Part shown: positions 2,058 through 45,200 of the stretch, piece by piece
Position numbering within the stretch: position 1 is the first letter of the stretch
Layout: every line of letters begins with the position of its first letter
Assembly: GCA_037447655.1 (NCBI GenBank)
Contig: JBBHKE010002306.1
Location: 62,001 to 126,000 of the forward strand
DNA length: 64,000 nucleotides
Direction of reading: 5' to 3'
DNA from: Zygnema cylindricum
Taxonomy: Eukaryota > Streptophyta > Zygnematophyceae > Zygnematales > Zygnemataceae
Notes under the pieces: model-generated
Database searches by the model: none
Seen by the model: only the letters and a program-made list of their open reading frames with translations
Told to the model about the DNA's origin: nothing
Position numbers and translations under genes: made by a program

Positions 2058-2966
2058 ATGGCAAATCATGCACGGAAATGTGGAATCGATAATGACTTGA
2101 ATGTGTTGAAGAAGCGTACTAGTGAAATTGGTCAAAAGATTTAATAATCACGCTGCTGCTGTGGATGAAACCATTTCCGAATTGAAAAGTGAATTGAAAG
2201 TTGTTAAAGAAAATGGAAATGTTTCAAATGAAAAATTGGACGAAGTTATTAACTTCATTCAGACCAAGGATGATGTTAATGACCTAAAGGGTGAAAGTAG
2301 TAAAAGGAATACCAGTTTTAGGGAGGATGATCATGATAGACCTAAAAAGATAAGAGATCTAAAATTGACTATTAGTGAGGCACCATCGTTTGATGGTAAG
2401 AAGATTGATGAGTTGGATGCTTGGATTTTTCATATAGAGTATTATTTAGAATCTAGAAATTGTGATGGTGACGATTATACTTCTTTTGCTGTTAGCTGTC
2501 TGAAAGGTGATGCTCAGATTTGGTATTCCACTCAGAGAAGGTCTAATTTAATTCCTGATAATGCTGATGGGGAAGCTATTAAAACCGCGATCAAATCGCG
2601 TTACTTGTCGGTCACTTATAAATCAAAATGGAAGAAAAGTGGCTGAACTGTAAGTAGACTGGATCTGTGAAAGATTACATTGTGGAATTTGACTCATCTA
2701 GCATTCATATTATGGGTTTGATTGATGAAATGGCTAAGTTGCATTTCTTGAACTATCTGAATCCTATACCGAAATCAGAACTGAAACATCAAATTTTTTA
2801 ATAATTTGAAGGAATTACAAGATAAGTCATTGGAATTAGAAGACCAGTTGGGGTACAATCGGGAGACTTGATCACTAAGGGGTAATTTGAATGAAGTATA
2901 ACAGTGAGATGAGGAGAAATTTGTGGATGAGGGTTTGAATGCTGGTCTGGTGAATAGGCAAAATAT
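2058..2966 (+). pseudogene. Ty3/gypsy gag (element G1), first part, broken
   Basis: Gag forms the capsid of the retrotransposon particle. The first ATG (2058) opens a frame that runs into a stop after about 28 codons. The reading then continues one frame over (2122-2646) as 174 residues with a coiled-coil-like N-terminus and the retrotransposon-gag core: FDGKKIDELDAWIFHIE, LKGDAQIWY. After 2646 a further frameshift is needed to follow SVKDYIVEF and later residues. The frame is cut at 2966 by the insertion of G2 and resumes at about 15748, where codons for N-I-F-N-E join up with the R-Q-N codons here. It is therefore disabled by frameshifts, stops and a 12.8-kb insertion. Confidence 0.8.
2962..2966. 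repeat. Left target-site duplication of G2
   Basis: AATAT lies directly before the first base of G2 (TGTC...). The right partner is AACAT (15745-15749), one mismatch. If the element is taken to end GACA, the duplication is ATAT/ACAT. Four to five bases is normal for DDE-integrase insertions. Confidence 0.55.
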
Positions 2967-4141
2967 TGTCAAGCTTGAGTGCTTTTCAGACACACTTCTA
3001 TATTACCGAGGATTTCCGTACCCTTCCGACCCGTACTATTCTCAGATTTCGGAGAAGCCCGCACAACTTGCCAGAAGGATTGAAGTATTTCCTCTACTGA
3101 ACAAGACGCACTTTGTTTCGTACCTAACGGAGGCTGGACGACAAAGTTCTACCGTCTGAAAGATCGCAGTTCCGTCACATAGTACTAGCTTCCACCAGCC
3201 CTAGTGGAGGGTACATTGTGGATTGCCACGTAGACTTCCGGACTGTAATCTAGATTTTGCTGTTAGCTGTCTGTAGCAATTCAGTTCAGATTCAGCTGAC
3301 CAATGGTTAATTAATTACATTAAGTCAAAGCTTGGCACTTCCGTGTCTTTTTAGTACTTTGTCTTAAAAACTGTGGAAGAAATAATAACTTCCGGCTACG
3401 GATCTAGCCGTGGTCAGAGGTCCAACTTTTTGCCCCAAGAGTACTACACATTATTTTGTCTTATGTCAGTTTGTTTGCCGTCGCTTGTCGCTCATTGGCT
3501 AATAGCGTAGGTTTGACTTTTGGACCTGATTTTGGACAAACTTTGATGTATAAGGCGCTTGGGGCCGAAGGAGACAGGTTGCTTTTCAGTACTGTCTCCT
3601 GTGAAAACCCTCAAGAATTCCAACAAACCTTCTTTTCGAGAATCTTTATGTTGTTTGACTCTATTGCCATCTCTATTTTGGATTTCTCCATTTTGGGAAT
3701 CATAGTTCGGGCTGGTGGTTGGCACTACCGTCCCTTTGGGTGATTTTTGGATTTTTCGCTGCTTGAAACTGAAAAGAGGCTAGTCGGTTCTGAGCTGCGG
3801 ACACCGAGGGTTGAAAGAGTTCCATACCTATTTACACTGCCATCAAGAGAGATTTCGCCTTTCTCCCATTGTCATCGTAAATTGTCGGGGTATGTTAAGC
3901 TTGCTTTGCAATCTTTTATATCTTCTATCTTATATTTTATTTCTGTGGTCAAGGTGATATTGTTAAATCTGAAACAACCATTCCTATTTATTTTTATATG
4001 TCCACGTGGTAGTGCACTTATGTCTTCACTTTTAGTCTCTTTTGCTTTGGCGGGGACTTCCTGGGGTAAAACTGCAATTTCCTGGCATCGAAACAGTGGG
4101 TTTTGAGGAACGAATGCTATAGACTTCCTGTGGAATAAGCA
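2967..4141 (+). repeat. Segment Y1 of G2 (R-U5-like part of the LTR, first copy)
   Basis: 1175 bp, starting TGTCAAGCTTGAGTGC and ending GAATAAGCA. Repeated at 14285-15459. A 95-codon open stretch at 3456-3743 recurs in the second copy but is probably a by-product of LTR homology. No tRNA-type PBS follows the segment; the next bases are CAGTACTGAAAATCAACC. Confidence 0.85.
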
Positions 4142-4228
4142 CAGTACTGAAAATCAACCCTGTCTCCTTCGGATTAGAGGGGATAGGAGCTTTTTTGACT
4201 TTAGAAGATCTCTTGGCGGAAGCGAGTA

Positions 4229-7200
4229 TTGTTTTCTGTCGTTAATTCCTCTTTCGAGACCTTCGTCATCATGGGGGGAGGTGAAGCTCAAGATAAGAAT
4301 CTCTGTGGTGCCAGGCCGGAAGAACGGGCGAATCGAGAAGCGGTGGTATCAGAAGAAGAGTCACAGGTTCCCGAAGAATCTGTCCCCTTCACCTCGCCTG
4401 CCAACATAGAGCGGTTTCTCCAAGGGATAATGCCTGAGCCTGTTAGGGTTCAAACTCCTCCAAAACCACCCGAACCACAAACTTCGCCCCCATCTCCTCC
4501 TAGCCTCACTCCTGAACATTTTCCCTCCTTGGCGGAGGCCTCCAGAACCTTTGCCGAGGAAAGAAAGGAGTCCACAGCACAGGCTCAAGAAAGAAACCAA
4601 GTGTTACCCCGGGCCAGGCCAAAGAGGCAAGCTCAGCGAGAGCCCCTTTTGGGTCCCCTTCCGGAGGTTGCGCTTCACACCAGATCAAAGATTCCCCGGG
4701 CCGAAATTCAGATTGACCCTGCGGTTTTGACGGATCCCAGCCGCCCTGGTCGAAAGGAACTCCTTGCTCTTCATGATCTTCATGAACTGAAGGTTAAGCA
4801 GGAGTTGGAGCAAAGAGTGTCTCGGTCGAATCGACCTTGGGTGGTTAAACTAGTGGGAGGGGTAGTGGAGATTCTAAGTAGCTCTTCAGAGAGTGGTTCC
4901 TCCTAGTCCTTGCGAGAACGGCCCAAGAGGGCTCCTCCTTCTCGCCCTCCTCCATCTTCTTCCCAAGACAATGCAGCAAGCCGACCGTCCCGGGGGCGCC
5001 CAGCTTCGAGGTCTCGTAGGAGAGCAGGTGGAAGCGATAGCGCGGTTCCAGAGCCGGGGAGGGGGAAGAAGTTTGACCACAGGGATAGCAAGGGTAGATT
5101 TTCACCTATTCCCAAAGAAGAACCTTCCCCAACGCCAGTGCCAGTCTCCACCGAGTGATCTACCCCTCCGGCACCCTGGATCCGCCTTGATGGAGGGTTA
5201 TGGCGACCCAAACCCACTAACCTAGAGGTTCCGGAAACCGAACCAGAAGAGTTGTCCGAGGGATTGTTTCGAGCCAGGCCTACAGATCCAAAAATTCTAG
5301 GAGCAGGGATAGCTGATCTGACCGGAGTAGTGGAAAGGGCTAAGGAACTAGTGGAAATTTTAAAATGTCAGGGCTCGGCTATAGCGGGGACTAGACCCGT
5401 TAGAGTAGATTGGGAAGCGTTGGAGGAAGAACGGAGAAAGTTGTGGGAGCAGGAATTGAATCTCATCCTGGAAGCTAGGCGGAGGTCCAGTGGGATCCTC
5501 AGTGGGCGGATCCCTCCAACACTAGTAGCGGAAACCCCGCCCAGAGCTCCACCCCAGGCTCCTCCTTCGGAGATTGGTCAGAAACCTCCTCTTCAGCGGG
5601 AAGAGGGGGCAGACACAAGACCTAATATTAGGGGTTTTGGGTGCAAATTTATCATCTGAACTCGAAGCGGCTCCGCGGGAAGAGCCTACTTTTGTTTCGG
5701 TGGAGGTTTCTGAAGCTGTTGAGGCCTTAGTGGAGTTACGACCGGACAAAAGAATTCACATCCCCTCGAGACCGTCTACACCTCCTTCTCCTCCACCCAA
5801 ACTGTCCCTTGATCCTCCTCCTTTCCCTCCTCATCCTCCTACTTCCCACTCCGAGGCTCCGGCAGCAGAACCCCGGGACAATCCCATCTCCTCTCCATCT
5901 CCTTCCGTTTCTCTTACTGGAGCCCACCCAGGGTCCCCAGGTCCGCTGACTTTACCCTATAAGTACGACGTATACTCCCCTCCTCACCGGCGTTCCCCAT
6001 CCTCTAGTTCTGGAACTCCTCCACCTGAAACCTCTAGAAAAAGGCCTCGAAAACCGACCCCGTTAAGGAGACAGACACCTTCTCCCCAGAACCGGCCTTC
6101 ATCTCCATCTTCTTCTCCATCCCTACCCGAATATCCACCTGCAAACCGACCTCGGCTTCACATCACGTCCACGGAAACAGTTCTCCGGGACGAGCGATAC
6201 TCTAGTGGATATAGAGGGGTTGATATAGGGGAGTGGTCCCCTTCTTCTTCAGTCGGACAGACAGGCCCACGGATATCCTCTGCACCAAGAGAATCATCAA
6301 GGAATACCCTTCCTCCTACAACATTTCTAGGCACGGGTACTTCCTCTGCTGTAGGAGATTCCACACCTTACAGGGCAACACCTCCTACCGGAGGAGGAGT
6401 CGGATCCATTCCCAAGGAAGAGGACCTAGGAGCCACTTCGCCAGCCCAGTTTGTCAGTCCCACCAGACCTTCGTTGTCGCAGTTCACACATTCGGCAGAG
6501 GAGGAAAAAGAAATGGGGGACATCCGAATCTTTACAGGAGATAGCTCTGGGATAGCTTTCTCTGATTTCGAATTGTTGTGGAAATCCTTCACCCAATCTG
6601 AAATTAACAAGTACAGGGGAGGAGCTATTCCTGACGACTTCAAAATAACTCTCTTTCCCATGATGGTCAACTACCTCTCTGGAAGGGCGTTGGCAGATTA
6701 TAAGGAGCGTCAACCTCTCTTGATGGCTCCAAGCATCAAAATCTCAGATCCGGCCCTAGATGCAGAAGTTTTACGAGCGGAGGCAGATTTGGCTGCCGCA
6801 GCGGTGACCCCTGAACAGCTACCTTCACCGATGATATGAAGTTGCAGGCCCAAGGGAGGGCCTATGTTAACCAGCAGCAAGCAATTCAGGCAGCTCGGGC
6901 TGCAACTCGTATGGTGGCGAATCCTACCCCTTGCACCACTCTTCTAAACATCTGGAGACTCCTCTACACCGAGAGGAACGAATCAGCCATCAAGGAATTC
7001 ACAGAATTCCGGTGTTTGAAGAATGAGACGCCTCATACACTCTTTAACCGCCTCTATAGTCTTTATCAGAAGACTAAACTGTCTACCATTGACCTTCCCG
7101 CAATGGCGACCAAGTATTTCATTGCTGTGCGTAATTCCTTTGGACCGACAAGGCATACTGCCTTGGATAACTGGATCGCAGGACAGGCCATCCAGGACAT

Positions 7201-7560
7201 AAGTCCCTCGGCCAAGGACATATCCCTGGTGGCCATGAAGTTATACGACCACTTCGTTCACAGTGAGGCGAGAGAAAAAGCCGTGACCGGCAAGGCAAGA
7301 GCGAATTTTGTAGGATTCGCCGGTGAAACTTCCTTAAGTGGGGAAGAACAAGCGGAACTCCAAGCTTTGCGGAAGCTTAAAGGGAAGCAAGTTGTGGACA
7401 ACGGGCTAGAACATGCAATGGGGGCCGATGATCGGCTGATTCTGTATAATTGCCAAAATTGTCAACAACCTGGACATGGATAGAAACGCTGCAGCAGGAA
7501 ACTCAAACCGGAGCTAGCCCTCAAGTTGAAAGAATGGGAGGTAGAGCGTTCAAAAAGGAG
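4229..7560 (+). pseudogene. G2 Gag: long proline-rich region, capsid-like region and zinc knuckle
   Basis: Structural polyprotein of the particle. The first ATG is 4229, with a better-placed one at 4271. One frame runs 4229-5659 apart from a TAG at 4904 and a TGA at 5156. A frameshift near 5600-5640 leads into the 5574-6839 frame, and an ATGA overlap leads into 6836-7483. The first 700 or so residues are extremely rich in Pro, Ser, Glu and Arg (PPSPPPKLSL, SSSPSLPEYPP), which is unusual for gypsy Gag. A capsid-like segment follows from about 6510 (IRIFTGDSSGIAFSDFELL) to 7300. A CX2CX4HX4C zinc knuckle (CQNCQQPGHG, then C) ends the frame and contains a TAG at 7481. Confidence 0.7.
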
Positions 7561-7654
7561 CTAGAAGCAGCATGAAGAAAGGCTCAAAGCAGGGGGGGGG
7601 GGAGAGAACACCGATCACAAAGAACAATTACCGACCCACTCTAAGAGCGAAACT

Positions 7655-8059
7655 TTGAAAATGTCCCAGTCCCAACTGCGGCAAATCAAACTGCCAAAGT
7701 TTGACGATGCTCAGATCTCCAACGAGATTCGAAGCAAGTATACCACTGAGGGTCACAAAAGCCAAGCCTGTGGTTTTATGGGGCACAAGAAGGGACAATG
7801 TTTCCGGAAAAAAGGGATACCTAAGGAAATGATGCAATTCGCTTTGTTCACGGGAGGAGAAGAGACTGCCGTTAACCCTCCTCCCCTACAACTCCTTTAT
7901 CCTTGGGAGCGCCCAGTGCTGCCTACACCAATGACGCCGGAACCATTAACCAGTGCTCCCGCAAGAGTTACACCAGAGATAATAATCCAACAGCAGAGTC
8001 AGCAGATGGCTGCCATGGCTGCAGAATTGGCTTCACTTCGATTGGGGTCGACTTACTGA
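7655..8059 (+). pseudogene. G2 Gag C-terminal part with a second, damaged zinc knuckle
   Basis: This 134-residue frame carries SQACGFMGHKKGQC, which has the spacing of a CX2CX4HX4C knuckle but with Ser for the first Cys. A Pro/Gln-rich tail follows (IIIQQQSQQMAAMAAELASL), probably helical. It sits between the first knuckle and the protease, so it is most simply the tail of Gag or a spacer peptide. The frame relation to the upstream part is broken around 7490-7650, which includes a G-run at 7592-7601. Confidence 0.55.
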
Positions 8060-8170
8060 CCTGCTCCTCTTACGGCAGCGCAACGACTCCAAAGACAGAA
8101 GCAAGAGTTACTACAAAAGCTAGCGGAGCTTGAGCTTCAAAGCACATCGGGTGTTAATGACGATGATTTA

Positions 8171-9530
8171 ATGGGCTGGGATTTGGAACCCCCAAATGCC
8201 CACCATGCAAACAGTTTCTTGCACAGAGCATGGAATGTTGGAGTGGGAGATGGTCGTAGACAACTCCGCTCCTCAACCTCGGATCAAAGGAGAGACAGGC
8301 GGAAAATGGGCCAAAAGGACCACAACCGGAAGGCCACCGGGCCTTTGTCTTTCACGCCCAGGGTAGTCATTCTGAACAGTGACATAGGCCTTGGGATCAA
8401 GCCCACTCAACCCCCTCCTCTTCCTCCTCAACCTAAATTGCCTCCCGGTTTCGAAAATTACAAGAAAGAGAAACTACAGCAGGAGACAAAATCACTGGAA
8501 GAGGACAACCAAAGTACACAAGATTGGTTTGAACGGTTTATGGCCGAACGCCCAAACGAAGATGCACCAAAAAATTCACCCGTACCCGATTCCGGTTCTG
8601 AAACTGATGGCAACGAAGAGATAGAACCGGATCAGGAACAAAATTCGGCAACATCCTCCCCAAAAGCTCCGCTCCATTCCTCCAAGCCTGTTGTTATACT
8701 GGACCGGCATTTGATGCCTTATGCCTTGACCCATGTCAAGACCCTTGCTTCCTCCCATAATCTACCCGAAGAGATCCTCATTCAGGCCCTGGGAGAAGAG
8801 ATCCATTCTGGAAAAGACAAAGTCGACAGGGTGACACTACCCACGGCGGTATACTTGTCTTCAGATCCTAAGACCCCTATGGCGGATAGGGACTACAAAA
8901 CTTTGTCTGTGGCACTCATTCTAAACCGGACCAGGAATTTCAAACTGAACAGGTACGGCGGGTATCAGGACACTGTGGTGGATACCGGAGCACTTCCCAA
9001 CCTCATCACTACTTCTGCATTGGAGAAAATGTCGGAAGAACTCAGACCCCAGATCTGCCCGAGTAACATCTGGTTGAGCATAGTCAGCAGCGGCAATTAG
9101 CCAGTCCATGGGATCATCAAAGCCATGGACATTGAATTTTCCGATGATGCGGGACAGAAGGTCAAAATTGGACTTCCTTTCTTAGTGGTAGAAGGGAATC
9201 AGTTTGAAATTCTGTTGGGAATGGCAACTTAGACCCGCATGAATATGAGTTTGAGTGTTTGGAAGGAGCAATGTACAGTTCGGGACCCAGGAAATCCCGA
9301 AGGAACCAAAGTTGTGGTTCCTTTGGATTTATGGAACCGGGGAAAGACCAATGTTCTGGTGTCTGGCTGTTACCCCGTGTATTCTACCACCTCTCGGGCG
9401 GAGCTGTTTGACAGTTCCACAGATATTGCCGAAGACATCTAGCAATTCCCGATTTCCAAGCAGTGGGAGAGAGAATACACAGACAGATTATTGCAGGTGG
9501 CACACTCCGGCGGGGAGTGGATCAAACATT
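8171..9530 (+). pseudogene. G2 aspartic protease with N-terminal linker
   Basis: This would cleave the Gag-Pol polyprotein. The frame 8171-9100 begins with about 240 residues of charged, Pro-rich linker, then reaches the retropepsin active site VVDTGALPNLIT (about 8970-9005). A TAG at 9098 interrupts it; the same frame continues with FEILLGMAT, the hydrophobic-hydrophobic-Gly motif expected near the protease C-terminus, then a TAG at about 9232 and another at 9440. The catalytic DTG is intact, so the damage consists of stops. The region up to 9530 continues as an uncharacterised linker to the methyltransferase. Confidence 0.7.
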
Positions 9531-9534
9531 CTAG

Positions 9535-10752
9535 GCCTTACTATTACCGAAAACAGATTCGACGATCCAGTCAGATGCTTTCAAAACTAAGACTGGGAGC
9601 GAGGACTTCAATCGACAAGTGGTGTCATTGACAGTCCCAGACTCCGGACTTCGGATTTAATCTTTATTTTCAGGAATCAGTTCTGATTTGGAGGTAGTTT
9701 TAAAGGCAGGGTATCGAGTGGAGTCATACACAGCAGAGGAAATTTCACCGGAAGCGCGAGCTGTCAGCAAACACCGCCTACATCAACTGCACCGCTTATA
9801 TCCTCAACAACTTCTAGTGTCTTCCATTTCCAAAGCTCACTGGAGTCTTCCCCAGAATGTAGATAATATAATGGCACCTCATTTAGCTACTCTAGGAAGA
9901 GTAGATCTGGTTGTGGCGGGATGGCCTTGTCAGGGATACTCCCTAGCACGACAAAGAAGAGGGCATCAGGACCACCGAAGTGGAACCTTCTATCAGATGA
10001 TTACATTGATATCGTGGATTCAACAGCTCCAAGACACACCAGTGGGGTACATTCTGGAGAATGTCCACCCGGGGGATGATAAACGAAAGCAGGTTGCAAA
10101 AAGTTGGAATCAGGTAACCCGTATTCTGGAAGCTCCTTTGGTTTTTGACGCTGCTCAATTGGGATCTCGAGCGCACAGACTCCGAGGATATTAGACCAAT
10201 ATGATCCCTCTTCCAGTCCTCCGGCAACTGTTGGAGACACAAACCCCCGACCCCCAAATTTTAGTGCAGCAGATACTTGGAAAAGGGAGAATGGCGACAC
10301 CTGTAACAAAACCGGATCGTACACCTTTCTTACAATGTAATATCCCCGGATTCCCACGTCAAGCACTCACCACGTTGGTATCTTTTCCTCACAGTCACGC
10401 CTACCGGAAAGGAGCAGCTGGAATGATTTTTGACAGCAAGGAAAGACTTTGGACAGCACCAACAATATCACAACGAGAACAGGCAATGGGATTTCATCCG
10501 GAAACCACGGCAGCACCAGGTATTTCAGACCTACAGCGGTGCAGCCTCATAGGGCAAAGCATGGATTCAAATGCCATTACATGGGTTGTAAAGCATGCTC
10601 TTGCGTATTCCAGTCTCCACGCTCCAGATTCTCACAGAAATTACCTTCAAGCTCCACAGTTACTGTCCATGCAAGCAACTTTGCAGCTTGAGGGGGGGAG
10701 AGAAAAGAGAAAAATTGTACACCCGAGAGTTCTTTCAGCGGGGGGAACATGA
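9535..10752 (+). pseudogene. C5 cytosine DNA methyltransferase domain inside gypsy pol
   Basis: A domain of the family that transfers a methyl group from S-adenosylmethionine to carbon 5 of cytosine in DNA. Motifs are in canonical order: motif I SLFSGIS at 9661; the AdoMet-region TAEEISPEA; motif IV GWPCQGYS with the catalytic Cys codon at 9928; motif VI LENV at 10054; motif VIII GSRAHRLRGY at 10162; then a target-recognition stretch; motif IX QREQAMGF near 10471; motif X LIGQSMDSNAITW near 10550. About 330 residues, a complete catalytic domain. The AHR-x-R-x-(Y)-x-(T)N pattern of motif VIII and the ending look DNMT3/DRM-like to the eye, but motif order is not rearranged as in DRM. Breaks: a TAA at 9658 directly before motif I and a TAG at 10192 where the family has Trp. 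It lies between protease and RT in the frame of a pol polyprotein. Confidence 0.85.
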
Positions 10753-10829
10753 GCTCAGAAGGAGACAGCTTAGCGGAAGTTGTCAGCAGTAAAGTATTAT
10801 CCAGAGGAACAGAGGCAGATCAAAGGTTG

Positions 10830-12420
10830 GGCTAGAATTTGACATCAACCTCTGGGGAAGACCACCGGAAGCTTGGGCTGCGGTTGAGCTGGGAAAAATG
10901 GACTAGACTCTGGGGGAGCAGCTGGACCCTCAGCAGAAAGAAGAGCTAACAGAACTCTTGGCTAGAAACACTCTGCTTTTCTCATGGTCCGAAACAGATG
11001 TCGGAATCTACAAAGGAACCCCCTTTCGGATAGATTTGATCGACGAAACCGCAACGGTTTGGCAGAAACAATCTCCTCTCAGCTTCAAAGAGAAAGAGTT
11101 TATTATTGCAAAGGTTCAAACTTTGGTGGACGCAGGGTTGGTTCAGGAAATTACCGGACTACATGGGTTTGCTTCCCCCACAGTTCTCCCTCCTAAGAAG
11201 GATTCATACGGGAAAACTGTGGACTTCCGAATGTGTGGGGACTACCGCATGTTGAACACGGCCACCATTCCTGACCGGTACCTAATGCCAACTCCGGAAG
11301 AGATATTCGACTCTCTTGCTGGGGCAACTATATTCTCCACACTGGACATGAAGAATGGTTTCCACCAGATTGCCATGTAACCAAACCACCGGGAGAGAAC
11401 GGCATTTTGGGCCGGATCCAGACTTTATGAGTGGATTTACATGCCTTTCGGACTGAAGAATGCACCAGCAAAGTTCCAACGGGCCATGGACGAAGCGCTC
11501 CGAGGAATCGATTGTGCCTGATGCTACATCGATGATGTGATAATATTTTCCAAGACCTTTGAAGAAACACCTAGAGCATATCCAGATCGTTCTCCGGGCT
11601 CTTCAAGCAGCGGGCTTGAAATGTCACCCGGGCAAAGGTATTTTTGGAGTGCAGAAAATCATTTACCTCGGACATGAGGTAACTCCTAGGACATTGGGTC
11701 CCCATATAGTGAAGGTTGCAGTCCTCGACGCTCTTCCTCCCCCGCAGGACATTTCTGCCTTGCGCACCTTTCTCGGCTTGGCTAACTATTATCGCAGGTT
11801 TATTCCTGAGTTCATTAGTCACGCCTAACCCCTCAATAAGCTATTACGGAAAGATCAAGAATGGCAGTGGGCCGAGGAACAGCAGATCGCTTTCCAATTC
11901 TTGAAGGATGCCCTGAAGCAGCACCCAGTGCTCCGGATGCCTGATCACCAGAGGCCTTTCCTCCTTTACACTGATTGGAGCAGGTTTGGATTGGGAGCTG
12001 TTTTGGCTCAAGTTGACAACGCAGGTGCCGAGTATGTGGTGGCTTACGCCAGCCGGAGCAATAACCGAGCTGAGGGAAATTATAGCAGTTATCATGGGGA
12101 GCTTCTTGCCGCGGTTTGGGCCATCTAGCATTTTAGACCTTATTTGTACGGGGTCCATTTCACACTAATCACCGATCACCAACCCTTCAAGTGGATCATG
12201 GAAAATAGTAAGTTGACCGGCAAACTCGCCACATGGGTTCTTATCCTGCAGGAATATGATTTGAGCATTGTCCACCGGGCAGGGGAAATTCATGGGAATG
12301 CCGACGGACTGAGCCGAAACCTCGATCCTTCTACCATGGATTCCACCGGGGCTCGGCACGACGAGGATCCGGAAATCAGTTTGGGACTCATTCGAGCATC
12401 CTCTGCCTTCATTTGGCTTC
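10830..12420 (+). pseudogene. G2 reverse transcriptase and RNase H
   Basis: Copies element RNA into DNA and removes the RNA strand. After an upstream linker (about 10838-10957, with a TAG at 10904), RT motifs appear in order: KKDSYGKTVDFRMCGDYR (about 11197-11250), FSTLDMKNGFHQI (11335), MPFGLKNAPAKFQRAM (11440) and the catalytic YIDDVIIFS (11525). RNase H follows: LLYTDWSRFGLGAVLAQ (11960), the E of GELLAA (12100) and ITDHQPFKWI (12168), ending near AGEIHGNADGLSR (12280). The organisation is that of Ty3/gypsy. In-frame stops are at about 11378 (TAA), 11522 (TGA), 11826 (TAA) and 12126 (TAG), with one frame change near 11560. Confidence 0.85.
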
Positions 12421-12489
12421 TTCCATCTGGGGGGGAATTGTCAACTTTTGCAGCAGATGTTGAGGGGCAGGCACCCATGGGAGCCGGAT

Positions 12490-13780
12490 AGAAAGACATT
12501 TGGAATGACTCCGAAGCTCTCCAATCTATTCAGCAGGGATCCCCTCTTCCCCACTTGGCTGGAATTCAATTATCCGGAGTTCAGACCCGGATGGCGGCGT
12601 ATGAGTGGGACCGAGGAGTGCTCCTCGGGAAATGGACATACGGTACTAGGAGAGTGGTTCCTCCTCCCTCTGATCGAGAAACTCTGATTACCAATCTCCA
12701 TAAACAATGTGGACACTTCGGACAGAAGCAAACCACTTTGTTGGTTACAGGCTCTCACTGGTGGCACGGGATGCGGGCCCAAGTCAACCGAATTGTACAG
12801 ACTTGCTCTTCTTGCGATCGAGTTAAGGCAGCTTTTGACAAAAAGGGCGCGACTGAGCTCCATTCTCTTCCCATCACGGGAATGTTTTATCGGTGGTCTT
12901 TCGATCTTTTGGGACCTCTTCCGACCTGGAGACGTGGGAATCGTTTCGTTCTGGTCATGATTAAACATTTCTCAAAATTAATAGAGCTTGTGGTCGTGCC
13001 CCGAAAAGAGTCCTAGTCCATTTCCGACGCCTTTCTGCAGAGAGTCCTGTCACAGTTTGGGGCGCCAGCAGAGGTTCTAACCGACCAGGGATCAGAATTC
13101 GCCGGAGAATTTACCAATCTTTTGGAGAAATGCCTCATCGACCATCGACTTACCAGCCGCGACCACCCCCAAGCCGACGGTTTGGCCGAAAGGTGCGTAC
13201 AGACAATGAAGCGGTCACTACGGAAATATGCAGTTGAAGAGGACTTGGGAGAGTGGGACAGAAGGGTGCCTTGAATTGCCATGGGATACCGATTCAGCAG
13301 ACAGGCTTCTCTTCACTCCTACAGCCTTTACTTCATTTTATTCACACGACATCCCATTTTGCCCGAGGCTGCCTCTGCCCAAGCGGTGGTCCTCCCGGCA
13401 ATGGATGACAAGGGAACTGTCGAAAAACTGATCGCCGACCGTGCCAAAATTTTCCACTGGGAGATGCCTCTCGCCATGGGGAATTTACAGGCGGCACAAC
13501 ACCGGGATCAAATATGGTATTCCCAGCGCCGGAGCGGAGATTATGTGCCCCGACAACGACGATTTATGTCGGGAGACTTTGTTTATCGCATGCGACAGAA
13601 AAAGGACACGCTTGACATTTCTGCCGGGCAGGTGATCTTGAAAGTGGTGGAAGTTTCAAATAACGGAGTTCTGACTTTGGAAGGGAAAGATGGACGAAGA
13701 ATTAAAGAGAATCAAATCAATGTGGCCCCTTGTCACCTCCGAGGATTAGAAGACGACCCCACTTACCACTTGACTTACTT
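12490..13780 (+). pseudogene. G2 DDE integrase
   Basis: Inserts the DNA copy into the genome. An HHCC zinc-binding module (HKQCGHFG ... TCSSCDR, 12700-12830) precedes the catalytic core. The first Asp is in WSFDLLGPLP (12898), the second in LTDQGSEF (13079) and the Glu in ADGLAER (13175). The C-terminal part has a GPY/F-like module (SGDFVYRMRQKK ... EVSNNGVLTLEGKDGR, 13570-13700). Premature stops are at 12488 (TAG), 13015 (TAG) and 13272 (TGA, where related proteins usually have Trp in the W-I-A-M-G-Y position). The catalytic triad itself is intact. This argues against G2 being a tyrosine-recombinase element despite its terminal layout. Confidence 0.85.
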
Positions 13781-13789
13781 TGCCGATCC

Positions 13790-13957
13790 TCCTTCCTGTT
13801 CATCATCTTGCAACTTCTCCTCCCAGCAGCAAGACATCTTGGTCTGCCATCAGTGCGGGCAGTGCTGGCATCCAGCTTGTCTCCCCTCCTCATGGGAACC
13901 ACGCCCTCGATCACCTAGTCCATGGTTCTGCAGGAACTGTGAATTGGGCGGGTAACT
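13790..13957 (+). pseudogene. PHD-type zinc finger at the C-terminus of G2 Pol
   Basis: Continuous with the integrase frame (ends 13955). Cys/His spacing is C-x3-C, then LVCHQCGQCWHPACLP, then WFCRNCE: a C4-H-C3 pattern with the hydrophobic-Cys-x2-Cys and the WHPAC core of PHD fingers. PHD fingers bind histone tails. Chromodomains at this position in chromoviruses guide integration to marked chromatin, so by analogy this module could tether the integrase. Whether it binds a modified or unmodified histone cannot be read from the sequence. The first two Cys have wider than usual x3 spacing. Confidence 0.7.
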
Positions 13958-13982
13958 ATTTCTTTTTCTTAGTCACGGTTGA

Positions 13983-13999
13983 CTAAGAGGGGGGGAAAT
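13983..13999 (+). promoter_or_regulatory. Polypurine tract of G2
   Basis: A purine run (AAGAGGGGGGGAAA) directly before TTGGGGCACC at the start of X'. In LTR elements this primes plus-strand DNA and marks the start of U3, so it places the U3 start at X' and not at Y2. Confidence 0.65.
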
Positions 14000-14282
14000 T
14001 GGGGCACCGACCCGATTACCGAGAACCCAACCCCTTTCCCCGGCTTAATGGGGAAAGTAAGGGGGAGGGGAGATCTTTTCGCCTTCCCATGCACTCATCC
14101 CTATTCCCTATCCTTGTGCCTCTCCTATCTGTGCATGCATTCCTGTTGGGAGGGATGGGGTCAGCAGTGGGCATTATAATTATTATGGGAAGCATTCGCA
14201 TTGGTGGGTTCTTTGCAGGACGCCGAGACCGGCCATTCCGGGCAGCGGGCCCTTCCCTTGTGTTACTCTGGCACGCTCGACA
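13996..14282 (+). repeat. Segment X' of G2 (U3-like, first copy)
   Basis: 287 bp from AAATTGGGGCACC to CTCGACA. Repeated at 15459-15745. It directly follows the purine tract and contains a TATA-like ATTATAATTATTATGG at about 14174, so it behaves as U3. Two bases (GC) separate it from Y2, giving the palindrome GACAGCTGTC. Confidence 0.8.
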
Positions 14283-14284
14283 GC

Positions 14285-15459
14285 TGTCAAGCTCGAGTGC
14301 TTTTCAGGCACACTTCTATATTACCAAGGATTTCCGTACCCTTCCGACCCGTACTATTCTCAGATTTCGGAGAAGCCCGCACAACCTGCCGGAAGGATTG
14401 AAGTATTTCCTCTACTGAACAAGACGCACTTTGTTTCGTGCCTAACGGAGGCTGGACGACAAAGTTCTACCGTCTGAAAGATCGCAGTTCTGTCACATAG
14501 TACTAGCTTCCACCAGCCCTAGTGGAGGGTACATTGTGGATTGCCACGTAGACTTCCGGAGTGTAATCTAGATTTTGCTGTTAGTTGTCTGTAGCAATTC
14601 AGTTCAGATTCAGCTAACTAGTGGTTAATTAATTACATTAAGTCAAAGCTTGGCACTTCCGTGTCTTTTTAGTACTTTGTCTTAAAAATTGTGGAAGAAA
14701 TAATAACTCCCGGCCGCGGATCTAGCCGTGGTCAAAGGTCCAACTTTTTGCTCCAAGAGTAGTACACTTTTTTTTGTCTTATGTCAGTTTGATTGCCATC
14801 GCTGGTCGCTCATTGGCTAATAGCGTAGGTTTGACTTTTGGACCTGATTTTGGACAAACTTTGATGTATAAGGCGCTTGGGGCCGAAGGAGACAGGTTGC
14901 TTTTCAATACTGTCTCCTGTGAAAACCCTCAAAAATTCCAACAAACCTTCTTTTGGAGAATCTTTGTGTTGTTTGACTCTATTGCCATCTCTATTTTGTA
15001 TTTGTCCATTTTGGGAATCATAGTTCGGGCTGGTGGTTGGCACTACCGTCCCTTTGGGTGATTTTTGGATTTTTCGCTGCTTGAAACTGAAAAGAGGCTA
15101 GTCGATTCTGAGCTGCGGACACCGAGGGTTGAAGGAGTTCCATACCTATTTACACTGCCATCAGAGAGATTTCGCCTTTCTCCCATTGTCATCGTAAATT
15201 GTCAGGGTATGTTAAGCTTGCTTCGCCATCTTTTATATCTTCCATCTTATATTTTATTTCTGTGGTCAAGGTGATATTGTTAAATCTGAAACATCCATTC
15301 CTATTTATTTTTATATGTCCACGTGGTAGTGCATTTATGTCTTCACTTTTAGTCTCTTTTGCTTTGGCGGGGACTTCCCGGGGTAAAACTGCAATTTTGT
15401 GGCATCGAAACAGTGGGTTTTGAGGGAACGAATGCTATAGACTTCCTGTGGAATAAGCA
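14285..15459 (+). repeat. Segment Y2 of G2 (R-U5-like, second copy)
   Basis: 1175 bp, matching Y1 (2967-4141) from TGTCAAGCTCGAGTGC to GAATAAGCA with scattered transitions. X'+Y2 together (from TGGGG at 14000) form a 1460-bp unit with TG...CA ends, the likely real LTR. Confidence 0.85.
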
Positions 15460-15745
15460 AATTGGGGCACCGACCCGATTACCGAGAACCCAACCCCTTT
15501 CCCAGGCTTAATGGGGAAAGTAAGGGGGAGGGGAGATCTTTTCGCCTTCCCATGCACTCATCCCTATTCCCTATCCTTGTGCCTCTCCTATTTGTGCATG
15601 CATTCCTGTTGGGAGGGATGGGGTCAACAGTGGGCATTATCATTATTATGGGAAGCATTTGCATTGGTGGGTTTTTTTCACGACGCCGAGACCGGCCATT
15701 CCGGGCAGCGGGCCCTTCCCTTGTGTTTCTCTGGCACGCTCGACA
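15459..15745 (+). repeat. Segment X2 of G2 (U3-like, second copy)
   Basis: 287 bp, a second copy of X' placed after Y2. It ends GCTCGACA and is followed at once by the continuation of the interrupted G1 gag, so this is the true right end of the G2 insertion. Confidence 0.85.
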
Positions 15746-15749
15746 ACAT
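15745..15749. repeat. Right target-site duplication of G2
   Basis: AACAT, one mismatch from AATAT at 2962-2966. The next codons (ATC TTC AAT GAA) restore the reading of G1 gag. Confidence 0.55.
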
Positions 15750-27279: not shown

Positions 27280-28230
27280 GCCGTATCACGTCGTCGCATT
27301 TTAACCGCATTTTAATCGCATATAAACGGTTTGTAAAATTTACGCCACACTAATTTGTATTGCGGTATGTTTCGGTGGCGACAGGACCGTACAAATTGTC
27401 GTTGACGTCGTGAAACCCGCGGACAGTTTCAGTTTCTCTACGCGAAGTCGTCTATCCGAGAATTTTGGCGAACCGACATACTTGTCGGCCGGAATTTTCG
27501 CAACCAATTTGGATCGATGTACGGACGATCGCGAACCAAAACATCAACTGCAAATAATGTCGACGCCAGCGTGGATTCGAACGCGAATCTACGGCCACGA
27601 AGGATGCAGACAAATGGACGGTCCAGATGCGAATTGCACGCAGTACCATTTAAAGTCGTGGACCCTTGGAGGTCTCACGCATTTACATGTAGCGCAGGAA
27701 GGGTTTTTATCTGTAGGCTGTAGATTTTGTAAAGAAAGGTTGACGATTCTGGTCGCTTATTGGCCAGAATCCAAACTAAGCGCAGACAACTATATAGAAC
27801 GCATGTAGTCGTAGTAAGGTAGACTCTCAGCTGTAGACTTTGTACTTAGCGAATTTTAGGTGAATTTTGTGCTCACAATTTCAAGAGCACGAGAATTCTC
27901 ATTTTGGAAGATTTGACCTAAACTTTGAGTATTTTTTTTTATAAATTGAGCCTCCTAGCTTCCTCTCTCACTCTACCTTTATTATTTTTATGATATGTTT
28001 ATTTGCTGCTTGCTGCTTGTACATAATTATTCTCACTCGTATTTTGAGATGTTCATGACTTTCTCGCTTATTTGTTTATTATTTATTTTGCAACTAATTG
28101 TAATGCATATTTACCATCCCTTTTGTCACATGCACGACATCCATTTAGTCTAGGACTTGTGCTAGGACATATAGGGTTAGATAGATATTTATATAATTAC
28201 AAGTACGGTTTCCATTTAACTTGATTATGG
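27280..28230. other. Unassigned stretch inside the N2 LTR
   Basis: About 950 bp without recognisable homology to the other LTRs. A 132-codon frame (27410-27808, +) shows no motif I recognise and has overlapping frames on both strands, so it is not called a gene. The rest is AT-rich with short GCTGCTTGCTGCTTG and T-rich runs. Confidence 0.4.
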
Positions 28231-42404: not shown

Positions 42405-44075
42405 GGAAACACATTTTCTCCTACAAAATTTGTTCTCTACTTTCCCGATTTATCTAATTTCTGCGTTTCCTTTTTTTTCTATATTTTCCCGATTCTCCGT
42501 TTTCTGCGTTTTCTTTTTTGTCTCTACTTTCCTGATTTCTCCAATTTCTGCATTTCTCTTTTTTTCTCCACTTTCACGATTTCTCCGATTTCTGCGTTCT
42601 GCTTTTATTTCTCTACTTTTCCAATTTCTCCGTTTTCCGCGTCTTCATTTTTTTCTCTACTTTCCCAATTTCCCCGTTTTCTGCGTTTTCTTTCTTTTCT
42701 CTTCTTTCCGATTTCTCTGTTTTCTGCGTTTTTTTCTTTTCTCTACTTTCCCATTTTCTCCATTTTTTGCATTTTCTTTTTTTTTCTACTTTCCCATTTT
42801 CTCCCTTTTCAGAGTTTTCTAATTCGTCTCTACTTTCCCGATTTCTCCGTTTTCTGCGTTTTCTTTTCTTTCTTTACTTTCCCGATTTCTCCTTTTTTTG
42901 CGATTTTTTTTGTTTCTCTATTTTACCGATTTCTCCATTTTCTGCGTTTTGTTTTTTTTCTTTACTTTCCCATGTTCTCTGTTTTCTGCATTTTCGTCTT
43001 TTTAATTTATTTTCCCAATTTCTCCGTTTTTTGCTTTTGATATTTTTTTCCCTACTTTCCCGATTTCACTGTTTTCTGTGTTTTCTTCTTTGTCGCTACT
43101 TTCCCATTTTCTACGCTTTATGCGTTTCCTTCTTTGTCTCTACTTTCCCATTTTTTCCATTTTCTGCGTTTACTTTTTTGTCTCTACTTTCCCATCTTCT
43201 CCGTTTTCAGCGTTTCCTTCTTTGTTCTACTTTCCCGATTTCTCCATTTTCTGTGTTCCTCTTTGTCTCTACTTTCCCGATTTCTCCGTTTTCTGCGTTA
43301 TCTTTTTTTTTTCTACTTTCTCGATTTCTCCGATTTCTGCATTTTCTCTTATTTCTCTACTTTCCCGATTTCTCTTTTTTCTGCGTTTTCTTTTATTTTT
43401 CTCTTTTCCCATAGTCTCTTTTTTCTGCGTTTTTTTCTTAGTCTCTACTTTCCTATTTTCTACTTTCTCTGCGTTTCCTTCTTTGTCTCTACTTTCCCAT
43501 TTTCTCCGTTTCTAGCGTTTGATTTTCTTTCCATACTTTTCCGATTTCACCGTTTTCTGCGTTTTCTTTTTTTTCTTTACTCTCCCATTTTCTCCGTTTT
43601 CTGCGTTGTCTTCTTTGTTCTACTTCCTGATTTCTCTGTTTTATGCGTTTTCTACTTTGTCTCTACTTTCTTGATTTCTTTGTTTTCCGCGTTTTCTTAT
43701 TTTTCTCTAATTTCCCATTTTCTCCGTTTTCTGCGTTTTCTTATTTTTCTCTAATTTCCCATTTTCTCCGTTTTTTGCGTTTTCTACTTTGTCTCTACTT
43801 TCCCGATTTCTCCGTTTTCTGTGTTTTCTACTTTGTCTATACTTTCCCGATTTCTCCGTTTTCTGCGTTTCCTTTCTTTGTCTCTACTTTCCCATTTTCC
43901 CGTTTTTTTTTCTCTACTTTCTCGACTTCTGTTTTCTGTGTTTTCTTCTTTTTTCTCTACTTTCCCATTTTCTCCATTTTTTGCGTTTTGTTTCTTTTCT
44001 CAGTTTCCCCACCTTCTCCATTTTCTGCGTTTCTTTTTTTTCTCTACTTTCCCATTTTCTCCGTTTTCCGCGGCT
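42405..44075. repeat. 44-bp minisatellite, about 37 degenerate units
   Basis: The unit reads roughly CTCTACTTTCCCGATTTCTC then CGTTTTCTGCGTTTTCTTTTT. The word CTACTTTCCC recurs every 44 bp (for example 43096, 43140, 43184). Strand composition is almost all pyrimidine. The long Leu/Phe/Ser reading frames through it are artefacts of the repeat; all three plus-strand frames stay open over long distances. Confidence 0.9.
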
Positions 44076-44089
44076 GTTTTACCCCTTAC

Positions 44090-45200
44090 TATTTGGATTT
44101 CTGTTTTCCTAATTTTTGGTTTAAGGAGCGATTGTTTTGGGAAATTGGTTTCGGTTTTTGAAAAATCTCTACTATTGAGGGTAAACCTCTTCAGGATGAA
44201 AGTTTATAAAAGTAATTAAGGTTTTGCAGCACTGAAGACCCAAAAAAAAACTTTAAAGGGGAAACTTAAAAAACGATAAGTTTTGAAAGTCCATTTGCAG
44301 CAATCTTGATGGTAAAAAATAGGATTTTCAGAATATTTGGTAGTGTATAGAGTTTTCACATGCTTTTAAGGTTTTATTTATGGTAGAGTGTTTAAAAGGT
44401 TTAAGGGTTCCAGAGAATTTTAGGGTTAGAAGATATTAGATTTTTTATAATTAAAAGTTTATAGATATTTAGGGTTGAGTGTTTAGGGTTTGTAAAACTT
44501 TTCGGGGAAAAGAGACAAGGAGCACCCGAGTTTCGACATGCGAAAATTGATGAAGAGTGGGGGAGGGAGTAAGGGAGAGAGAGAGGAGGAAGGAGGGAGA
44601 GAGCACGGAGAGAGGGCGAGGGGGGAGAATGAGGGTACAGTGGTGAAGGGCGAAAGGGGAAAAGGGTGACGAAGTGGGAGGGTGGGGGCAAGGGATTTGG
44701 GGAGAGGGAGACAGGTAGAGCGAGAGAGGGAGAGAAGGGGGGAGACAGAAGGAAAGGGGGAACGGGAGGTAGGAGGCAGAGGAAGGAAGGGCAAGAGAGA
44801 GGACGGGGGAGAAGGTAATTAAAATTCACTGCTATATGGACAATATTTACAGATAATTATGATTTTTTAGAATGCGAATATCATAAAGGCTATGAAATAT
44901 TTTAGTTTAAGCTTTGAACTGATTTTAGACTAAACAAAAAACGTGATTACCTCAATAAAGGAGTCGATAGTATCGGTAAAAGCGGTAAATCAAGGTCCAC
45001 CGGTTAAAGTTACTTTCTGCAAATATACAAAAACTTAAATCGATAAATAAATAAAGAACTCAAAAACTAGCGAATAAACAAAACCTATACTGAAAAAATT
45101 ACTATTAACTGCCGTACCTCAGGCAAAGCAAAAGAAAAAAATGGGGTTTTCAGATTCAGGCTACCACAAAATTACCAAATTCTGACACGACAAAGCTGAA
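44090..45200. other. Non-coding stretch with purine-rich block
   Basis: 44540-44815 is nearly pure purine (GAGAGAGAGGAGGAAGGAGG and similar). The flanks are AT-rich. Short TTTAGGG phrases occur (44476) without forming an array. No gene supported. Confidence 0.5.

What the first reader, a model, noticed from the sequence alone, without database searches (positions are those of the whole stretch)
9535..10752. Gypsy retrotransposon with a C5 DNA methyltransferase between protease and RT
Seen: all core methyltransferase motifs (I, IV with PCQ, VI with ENV, VIII, IX, X) in one frame with gypsy pol, upstream of RT and downstream of a DTG protease. Known: capture of cytosine methyltransferases by retrotransposons has been reported in dinoflagellates and a charophyte alga, so the idea has precedent but is rare. 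Inference: the element may write methylation on its own DNA copies or on host chromatin, for instance to hide, to bias integration or to keep cDNA from recombining.
Basis: partly seen in the sequence, partly recalled or inferred. Interest (0 to 1): 0.9.

Follow-up and report, generated by a model that had tools for sequence, protein, structure and literature searches.

The report
Split-repeat Gypsy retrotransposon carrying DNA methyltransferase
A decayed copy of an abundant, still-selected green-lineage jumping gene that carries its own DNMT3-type DNA methyltransferase and whose odd repeat layout suggests that it inserts into the genome from a circular DNA.

Summary
The methyltransferase is real. 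It is a non-rearranged DNMT3-type C5-MTase between protease and RT of a Ty3/Gypsy-type element (2967-15745). This copy is dead: frameshift before the domain, two stops inside it, pol in two further frames. Sister copies have open frames of 1520, 1525 and 2395 aa. The MTase is multi-copy (124 scored matches, a lower bound) and under purifying selection. Relatives occur in Closterium, Marchantia, Haematococcus and metagenomes, with the MTase at one of two places in pol. The kind is known (KnitGypsy-Dnmt3, Klebsormidium nitens, 2018). New here: the split direct repeats (B1-coding-A1-B2-A2, DIRS-like) end in TGTC...GACA and are flanked by 4-bp target duplications (perfect in 5 of 10 copies with both ends read; 0 of 72 crossed pairings), with a DDE integrase and no tyrosine recombinase found. 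The inner A1|B2 border is the palindrome GACA-GC-TGTC, shaped like a retroviral circle junction, while B2|A2 looks like ragged end joining. I infer that the integrase cuts a two-LTR circle at this palindrome. Also found: a C-terminal PHD finger and a conserved UAG-CAA-UUC stop between protease and MTase. Host probably Zygnema cf. cylindricum (inference). What the methylation does is untested.

The parts
2963..2966 (.). left flank ATAT, probable 4-bp target-site duplication (3 of 4 bases match the right flank)
2967..4141 (+). B1 repeat, left terminus TGTC
   Evidence: 96.3% identical to 14285-15459
4268..7822 (+). gag region, in three frame pieces
   Evidence: tblastn with sister copy C1374, 50-73% identity
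8024..9439 (+). protease frame with DTGALPNLI, itself holding stops
   Evidence: 65% identical to sister copy C1042
9440..9442 (+). UAG stop followed by CAA UUC CC, conserved between protease and MTase; possible readthrough site
   Evidence: 7 of 7 family A copies whose upstream DNA was held
9646..10617 (+). DNMT3-type C5-MTase domain, broken by stops at 9658-9660 and 10192-10194
10823..11644 (+). reverse transcriptase, frame 2
   Evidence: Pfam RVT_1 below its cut-off in this piece
11547..13952 (+). end of RT, RNase H, integrase and PHD, frame 3 (stops inside)
   Evidence: 86% identity to sister copy C1374
13806..13940 (+). PHD finger at integrase C-terminus
   Evidence: PF00628 2.1e-05, 24.9 bits against a cut-off of 24
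13968..13987 (+). hairpin CTTAGTCA-CGGT-TGACTAAG next to the G-run
13989..13995 (+). G-run, probable polypurine tract
   Evidence: directly upstream of A1 here and in ten other copies read
13996..14282 (+). A1 repeat
   Evidence: 96.9% identical to 15459-15745
14279..14288 (.). internal palindrome GACA-GC-TGTC at the A1|B2 border
   Evidence: the family B form occurs 147 times in the genome against 2 for the reversed control
14285..15458 (+). B2 repeat
15459..15745 (+). A2 repeat, right terminus GACA
15746..15749 (.). right flank ACAT, probable target-site duplication

Best explanation
This is a dead copy of a large family of Ty3/Gypsy-type retrotransposons whose polyprotein reads Gag-PR-[UAG in family A]-DNMT3 methyltransferase-RT-RNase H-integrase-PHD. 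SHOWN by sequence: anatomy, copy number, open sister frames, selection, DNMT3 class, split direct repeats, TG...CA ends with 4-bp target duplications, DDE integrase residues. INFERRED: reverse transcription starts plus-strand DNA at the G-run and makes a linear A-B-coding-A-B DNA. Its ends are joined to a two-LTR circle, giving the ragged B2|A2 border. The DDE integrase then makes one staggered cut at an internal GACA-GC-TGTC palindrome, so that one site supplies both processed ends, and inserts B1-coding-A1-B2-A2 with a 4-bp duplication. The DNMT3 domain, made as part of Pol, most likely methylates the element's cDNA or circle, or the insertion site, before or during integration; the PHD finger probably tethers the complex to chromatin. 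In family A the UAG would keep MTase-Pol scarce relative to Gag-PR.
For: DNMT3: a profile of 9 MTases hits human DNMT3A at 9.5e-24, DRM2 at 7.4e-9 (a plant DRM-type chain 4onj at 3.9e-10), HhaI 2.4e-9, with motifs in DNMT3 order; AlphaFold model pLDDT 86 matches DNMT3B/3A/3C chains, E 3e-18. Selection: 11 stop-free copies, 36 of 55 pairs with usable Ks, median Ka/Ks 0.134; pairs with Ks>0.9 give 0.07-0.17; MTase pn/ps 0.145 against pol 0.124 in C1374/C544. Repeats: B1...A1-B2-A2 in order in window, C1344, C829, C1915, C449, C1042 and, interrupted, in C1374. A2 abuts B2 at 13 of 15 borders where the B2 end was read. Target duplication perfect in 5 of 10 copies with both ends read; control on 9 of them, 0 of 72 crossed pairings. 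C1344: B repeats 100% identical, frame 2395 aa. The palindrome is shared by families A and B, whose repeats gave no BLAST match to each other's elements. Integrase D,D-34-E in 8 of 8 copies read; PF00589 not among the hits in the frames scanned. Precedents: a spumavirus integrase cleaves the palindrome of two-LTR circles (abstract); history of the circle model (passages).
Against: No circle, RNA, protein or methylation data were seen. Of 10 copies with both ends read, 2 match at 3/4 bases (window, C449), C1042 at 2/4, C1374 at 1/4 and C544 at 0/4; C544 stops after A1. In C449 and C1042 B1 and B2 differ far more (87% ungapped; 83%) than A1 and A2 (96%; 95%), so their B1 may come from another copy. 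Of six copies sought by end strips, four gave one end or none. No tRNA-type (TGG) primer site follows B1, so normal priming is not shown. In family B the MTase is less constrained than RT, pn/ps 0.179 against 0.052. Family B and many type II relatives have ECQ in place of PCQ in motif IV. Retroviral work favours linear DNA as integration substrate.
Confidence: 0.63

Rival explanations
1. Linear model: non-standard priming makes a linear B1-coding-A1-B2-A2 DNA directly and the integrase uses its ends; no circle is needed.
For: No tRNA-type primer site after B1. DDE integrases are known to use linear ends (passages).
Against: The G-run lies directly before A1, not before B. The B2|A2 border varies: about 226 nt of B and the first bases of A lost in C1407, about 13 nt of B lost in L051, extra G in L053, extra C in C1374, as end joining would give.
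Confidence: 0.22
2. Ordinary LTR element; the split repeats arise after insertion by recombination or tandem insertion.
For: Nested and partial A-B-A pieces exist, e.g. C544 minus strand and C1042; B1/B2 and A1/A2 identities disagree in C449 and C1042.
Against: Same order in 6 copies, TGTC...GACA termini in 5 of them (TATC in C1042), and 4-bp duplications at B1 start and A2 end.
Confidence: 0.06
3. DIRS-type element that integrates by a tyrosine recombinase, with the DDE domain vestigial.
For: Same repeat geometry as DIRS elements (legends in PMC5890265).
Against: rve above cut-off in C1374 and C1344, catalytic D, D, E kept in 8 of 8 copies, 4-bp duplications, no PF00589 hit in the frames scanned.
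Confidence: 0.03
4. The MTase is a passenger without function for the element.
For: Many copies hold stops; two stop-free copies lost motif IV residues (WPSEGYS, WPCYGYS) and that pair has Ka/Ks 1.69.
Against: Deep Ka/Ks 0.07-0.17; MTase and RT-RH-IN trees share 8 of 18 splits, the type I/II split among them.
Confidence: 0.06

Closest known systems
KnitGypsy-Dnmt3 of Klebsormidium nitens (PMC5890265; abstract, sections 6, 9, 10, 11 and passages seen)
   Same: DNMT3 domain, not rearranged, in Pol of a Gypsy element; repeats 'the same as that of a DIRS retrotransposon' (legend); purifying selection Ka/Ks<0.2
   Different: Other host; 'PHD' and 'readthrough' do not occur in that main text. The sections seen describe no target duplication for it and no circle junction; figures and supplements were not seen.
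SymbioDIRS-Dnmt3 of Symbiodinium (same paper)
   Same: split repeats, DNMT3 in Pol; de novo CG methylation in yeast shown by the authors
   Different: tyrosine recombinase instead of DDE integrase
DNMT3 in LTR Copia and DIRS elements (PMC12344493, passages)
   Same: DNMT3 inside retrotransposons, recognised again in 2025
   Different: the passages seen name Copia and DIRS, not this Gypsy layout
TOC1 of Chlamydomonas (recalled; not found)
   Same: LTR order 217-4600-237/217-237 as recalled
   Different: not compared here
Retroviral two-LTR circle junctions
   Same: palindrome cut by integrase
   Different: here the palindrome is internal to the LTR; 2 nt lie between CA and TG (4 in retroviruses, recalled)

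Membership tests
Ty3/Gypsy LTR retrotransposon | PR-RT-RNase H-DDE integrase order | tested here: met
Ty3/Gypsy LTR retrotransposon | whole LTR at both ends | tested here: not met
   left end holds B only, right end A1-B2-A2; hence 'Gypsy-type' by enzymes, not by termini
Ty3/Gypsy LTR retrotransposon | short target-site duplication and TG...CA ends | tested here: met
   5 of 10 perfect 4-bp, TGTC...GACA
Ty3/Gypsy LTR retrotransposon | tRNA primer site after U5 | tested here: inconclusive
   no TGG start after B1 in 6 copies, by eye
DIRS/PAT retrotransposon | split direct repeats | tested here: met
DIRS/PAT retrotransposon | tyrosine recombinase | tested here: not met
   no PF00589 hit in the frames scanned
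DIRS/PAT retrotransposon | no target duplication (recalled) | tested here: not met
   4-bp duplications
DNMT3 methyltransferase | motif order I to X, nearest to DNMT3A/B | tested here: met
DNMT3 methyltransferase | PC dipeptide of motif IV | tested here: inconclusive
   PCQ in family A, ECQ in family B; Cys kept in those aligned, lost in C2373
DNMT3 methyltransferase | catalytic activity on DNA | not testable with these tools
   no assay
KnitGypsy-Dnmt3 lineage | common descent with the K. nitens elements | not tested
   no hit named K. nitens
TMV-type leaky stop (UAG-CAR-YYA, recalled) | UAG CAR YYA context | tested here: inconclusive
   UAG CAA UUC in 7 of 7 copies: CAR-YY met, last A not

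The most novel reading that the evidence does not exclude
An old green-lineage retroelement clade, from chlorophyte and streptophyte algae to a liverwort, has kept a DNMT3 enzyme as a core Pol domain, and at least in this genome integrates from a DNA circle through a built-in internal palindrome. That would be a natural, obligate form of the two-LTR-circle integration once proposed and dropped for retroviruses, with the element methylating the circle or its target before insertion.
Probability: 0.4. Interest if true: 0.88.

Novelty: new variant of a known kind. Interest (0 to 1): 0.72.

Why it matters
It makes two open questions testable. First, why a retrotransposon would carry a silencing enzyme: here is a multi-copy family with open frames, selection and two places for the enzyme in Pol. 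Second, whether a DDE integrase can use circular DNA in nature: the repeat layout predicts a specific circle joint, a specific cut site and specific ends. It also widens the known range of DNMT3-Gypsy elements. PMC6338049 reports methylase-encoding retrotransposons from green algae and charophytes among others and states that they are absent from land plants such as tracheophytes (passage); the Marchantia Gag-PR-MTase proteins found here bear on that for a bryophyte. The element may also explain the PHD 'expansion' reported in a Zygnema strain (inference).

Tried and rejected
Reading the LTRs as a plain pair with a truncated left end: rejected, because the same layout recurs in other contigs with target duplications. 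Tyrosine recombinase: not found. DNMT2 or bacterial Dcm origin: much weaker profile scores. Viral origin: the IMG/VR scan gave 6 loci at 29-61% over parts of the domain; the two inspected, L055 and L056, look like phage-type Dcm enzymes (naming mine); the other four were not read. Stem after the UAG: folds differ between copies, no shared structure seen by eye. Chloroplast marker for naming the host: no PF00016 match in the assembly; HSP70 did not complete. Pattern GACANNTGTCATGCCG, to measure the spacer, did not complete. Paper searches: in the listings I saw no paper that by title or abstract describes 4-bp duplications or a circle-type palindrome in such elements; the library is open-access only and few papers were opened. 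DNMT3A and one far diverged protein (P0049) were the only outgroups of the MTase tree, so a single capture is not proved.

Full report
What is there. The window is a stretch of a 352.8 Mb assembly (C1741:62001-126000). The element runs from 2967 to 15745. Mapping the frames of sister copies onto it gives gag at 4268-7822, protease at 8024-9439, MTase at 9646-10617 (coordinates), RT from 10823, and RNase H, integrase and PHD to 13952. This copy is broken: a frameshift around 9484-9502, stops at 9658-9660 and 10192-10194, and pol in frames 2 and 3.

Is the domain more than chance. Yes. PF00145 scores 39 bits against a cut-off of 22. A profile of nine relatives finds DNMT3A first at 9.5e-24, far ahead of a DRM-type chain (3.9e-10; DRM2 7.4e-9), HhaI (2.4e-9) and DNMT2 (7.7e-6), in the unrearranged motif order. 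Pfam PF00145 hits 8 of those 9 members. An AlphaFold model of a sister domain (pLDDT 86.1, pTM 0.86) matches DNMT3 chains at E about 3e-18.

Copies in the genome. With PF00145, 123 of 782 candidates were scored, giving 123 matches; at least one of them, L007, looks like a cellular chromomethylase exon (naming recalled). With the MTase of copy C1374, 123 of 1864 candidates were scored, giving 124 matches. Both are lower bounds for the family. Two families were told apart by eye. Family A (window) has WPCQGYS; family B has ECQGMS. C1344 (family B) has a 2395-aa frame with B repeats 100% identical; family A copies C1374 and C544 have frames of 1520 and 1525 aa.

Selection. I fetched nine further stop-free MTases and added C1374 and C544. 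All were chosen for lacking stops. Of 55 pairs, 36 had usable Ks, median Ka/Ks 0.134; the other 19 were saturated, with pn/ps 0.18-0.24. Pairs with Ks above 0.9 gave 0.07-0.17. Recent pairs gave 0.13-0.61, and C2373/C636 1.69; those two have lost motif IV residues. This is what selection in active lineages and decay after insertion would give. In family B (C1407/C449) pn/ps is 0.179 for MTase, 0.052 for RT and 0.092 for RNase H, with synonymous sites near saturation. In C1374/C544 MTase is 0.145 and pol 0.124.

Split repeats. Self-comparison gave B at 2967-4141 and 14285-15459, A at 13996-14282 and 15459-15745. Of ten regions (window plus nine fetched), six have B1-coding-A1-B2-A2 in order: window, C1344, C829, C1915, C449, C1042. 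C1374 has the same parts with 3.7 kb and a 325-bp duplication between; C1407 has A1-B2-A2 but no B1 was found; C544 has B1-coding-A1 only; C633 showed none. Six more copies were read only in strips around the expected ends; two of them gave both ends and four gave one or none. Six more were read at the border only.

Ends. Clean elements begin TGTC and end GACA. Four-base flanks are identical in C1344 (TTGG), C829 (AAGG), C1915 (CCCT), C228 (GTGG) and C1974 (AGGT); 3 of 4 match in the window and in C449, 2 of 4 in C1042 (whose left end reads TATC), 1 of 4 in C1374 and none in C544. That is 5 of 10 perfect. In a control on nine of these (without C1042), 0 of 72 crossed pairings are perfect. The A1|B2 border reads GACAGCTGTC. 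The family B form GACAGCTGTCATGCCG occurs 147 times in the genome against 2 for the reversed control. The repeats of family A and family B gave no BLAST match to each other's elements. B2 is followed directly by A2 at 13 of 15 borders where the end of B2 was read (window, C1344, C829, C1915, C449, C1374, C1407, C1042, C228, L050-L053, of which L050 only in part; not in L049 and L054). The joint varies: C1407 lacks about 226 nt of B and the first bases of A, L051 about 13 nt of B, C829 the first bases of A, while L053 keeps extra G and C1374 an extra C.

Reading of the ends. A G-run lies directly before A1 in 11 copies of both families, so plus-strand DNA should begin at A and the linear product should be A-B-coding-A-B. 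A hairpin next to the G-run is in the predicted minimum-energy fold of 4 of 6 copies folded. The integrated form is that linear product joined end to end and opened at one inner A|B border. The palindrome lets one staggered cut make two processed ends with a 2-nt overhang. The integrase keeps D, D and E with 34 residues between the last two in 8 of 8 copies read, and no tyrosine recombinase was found in the frames scanned. A spumavirus integrase is reported to cleave the palindrome of two-LTR circles (PMC1180852, abstract). PMC11054761 (passages) tells how the circle model for retroviruses was claimed in 1984 after placing a circle junction inside the genome and was then displaced by linear-DNA evidence. 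This element has that arrangement by nature. A linear route with unusual priming is not excluded, since no tRNA-type primer site was seen. The B1/B2 and A1/A2 identities agree in the window (96.5 and 96.9%) but not in C449 (87 and 96%) or C1042 (83 and 95%), which the model does not explain without recombination.

Stop codon. Between protease and MTase all seven family A copies whose upstream DNA was held (window, C633, C1042, C412, C1374, C507, C544) have UAG-CAA-UUC, including C412, 54% identical in protein. C1344 of family B reads from Gag to PHD without a stop. A leaky stop is the simplest reading; no shared RNA fold followed.

Relatives. The MTase lies either between PR and RT (type I) or between RNase H and IN (type II). 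Of the 25 proteins with an integrase hit, 19 also have a PHD hit; the Closterium ones do not. In the MTase tree type II is one clade (SH-aLRT 99; five short hits, two of them the Closterium proteins P0044 and P0048, were left out for length). The MTase and RT-RH-IN trees of 21 elements share 8 of 18 splits, the type I/II split among them. In a small IN tree one type II row, P0046, sits beside type I with weak support. MTase-bearing elements separate from the few MTase-free hits in IN and RT trees (4 and 5 such rows). So the enzyme seems to have stayed with its element through deep divergence and to have moved within Pol perhaps once. The outgroup is thin.

Methylation trace. Between B1 and B2, transitions per CpG site exceed those elsewhere: 0.114 against 0.018 in the window, 0.184 against 0.046 in C449. 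This fits CpG methylation of the copies, by the host or by the element.

Host. Unnamed. Zygnema cf. cylindricum SAG 698-1a fits: 359.8 Mb, 3,587 scaffolds, 73.3% repeats, Copia-rich, and a PHD family at least 9-fold larger than in sister strains (PMC9915684, passages). The chromomethylase-like exon fits a streptophyte. This is inference; no marker gene was tested.

Verdict. The kind is known. The combination of split repeats, DDE integrase, 4-bp duplications and internal palindrome is the new part, and the circle step is an inference.

Noticed in passing
window 18618-58612: Copia-type frames and large inverted or direct repeats fill much of the rest of the window.
   Followed up: no
window 27343-27810: Pieces 74-82% identical to the B repeat of family B copies, a likely remnant of a second element.
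   Followed up: no
window 42429-44109: Long degenerate tandem repeat with open frames rich in F, S and L.
   Followed up: no
L010 (C1374:31633-35348): 3.7 kb of other DNA flanked by two copies of a 325-bp piece (coding end, G-run, A) inside a family A copy.
   Followed up: partly
L017/L018 (C449), L021/L022 (C1042): B1/B2 are far more diverged than A1/A2, so the two ends have different histories.
   Followed up: no
P0049: Gag-MTase protein, perhaps of a dinoflagellate Copia-type element, with a far diverged DNMT3-like domain (naming mine).
   Followed up: no
P0013, P0017, P0022, P0027: Marchantia 'hypothetical proteins' that look like Gag-PR-MTase of a retroelement.
   Followed up: partly
PMC9915684: The reported PHD expansion in Zygnema SAG 698-1a may be retroelement PHD fingers (inference).
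   Followed up: no
many type II relatives and family B: Motif IV reads ECQ instead of PCQ, with the catalytic Cys kept.
   Followed up: no
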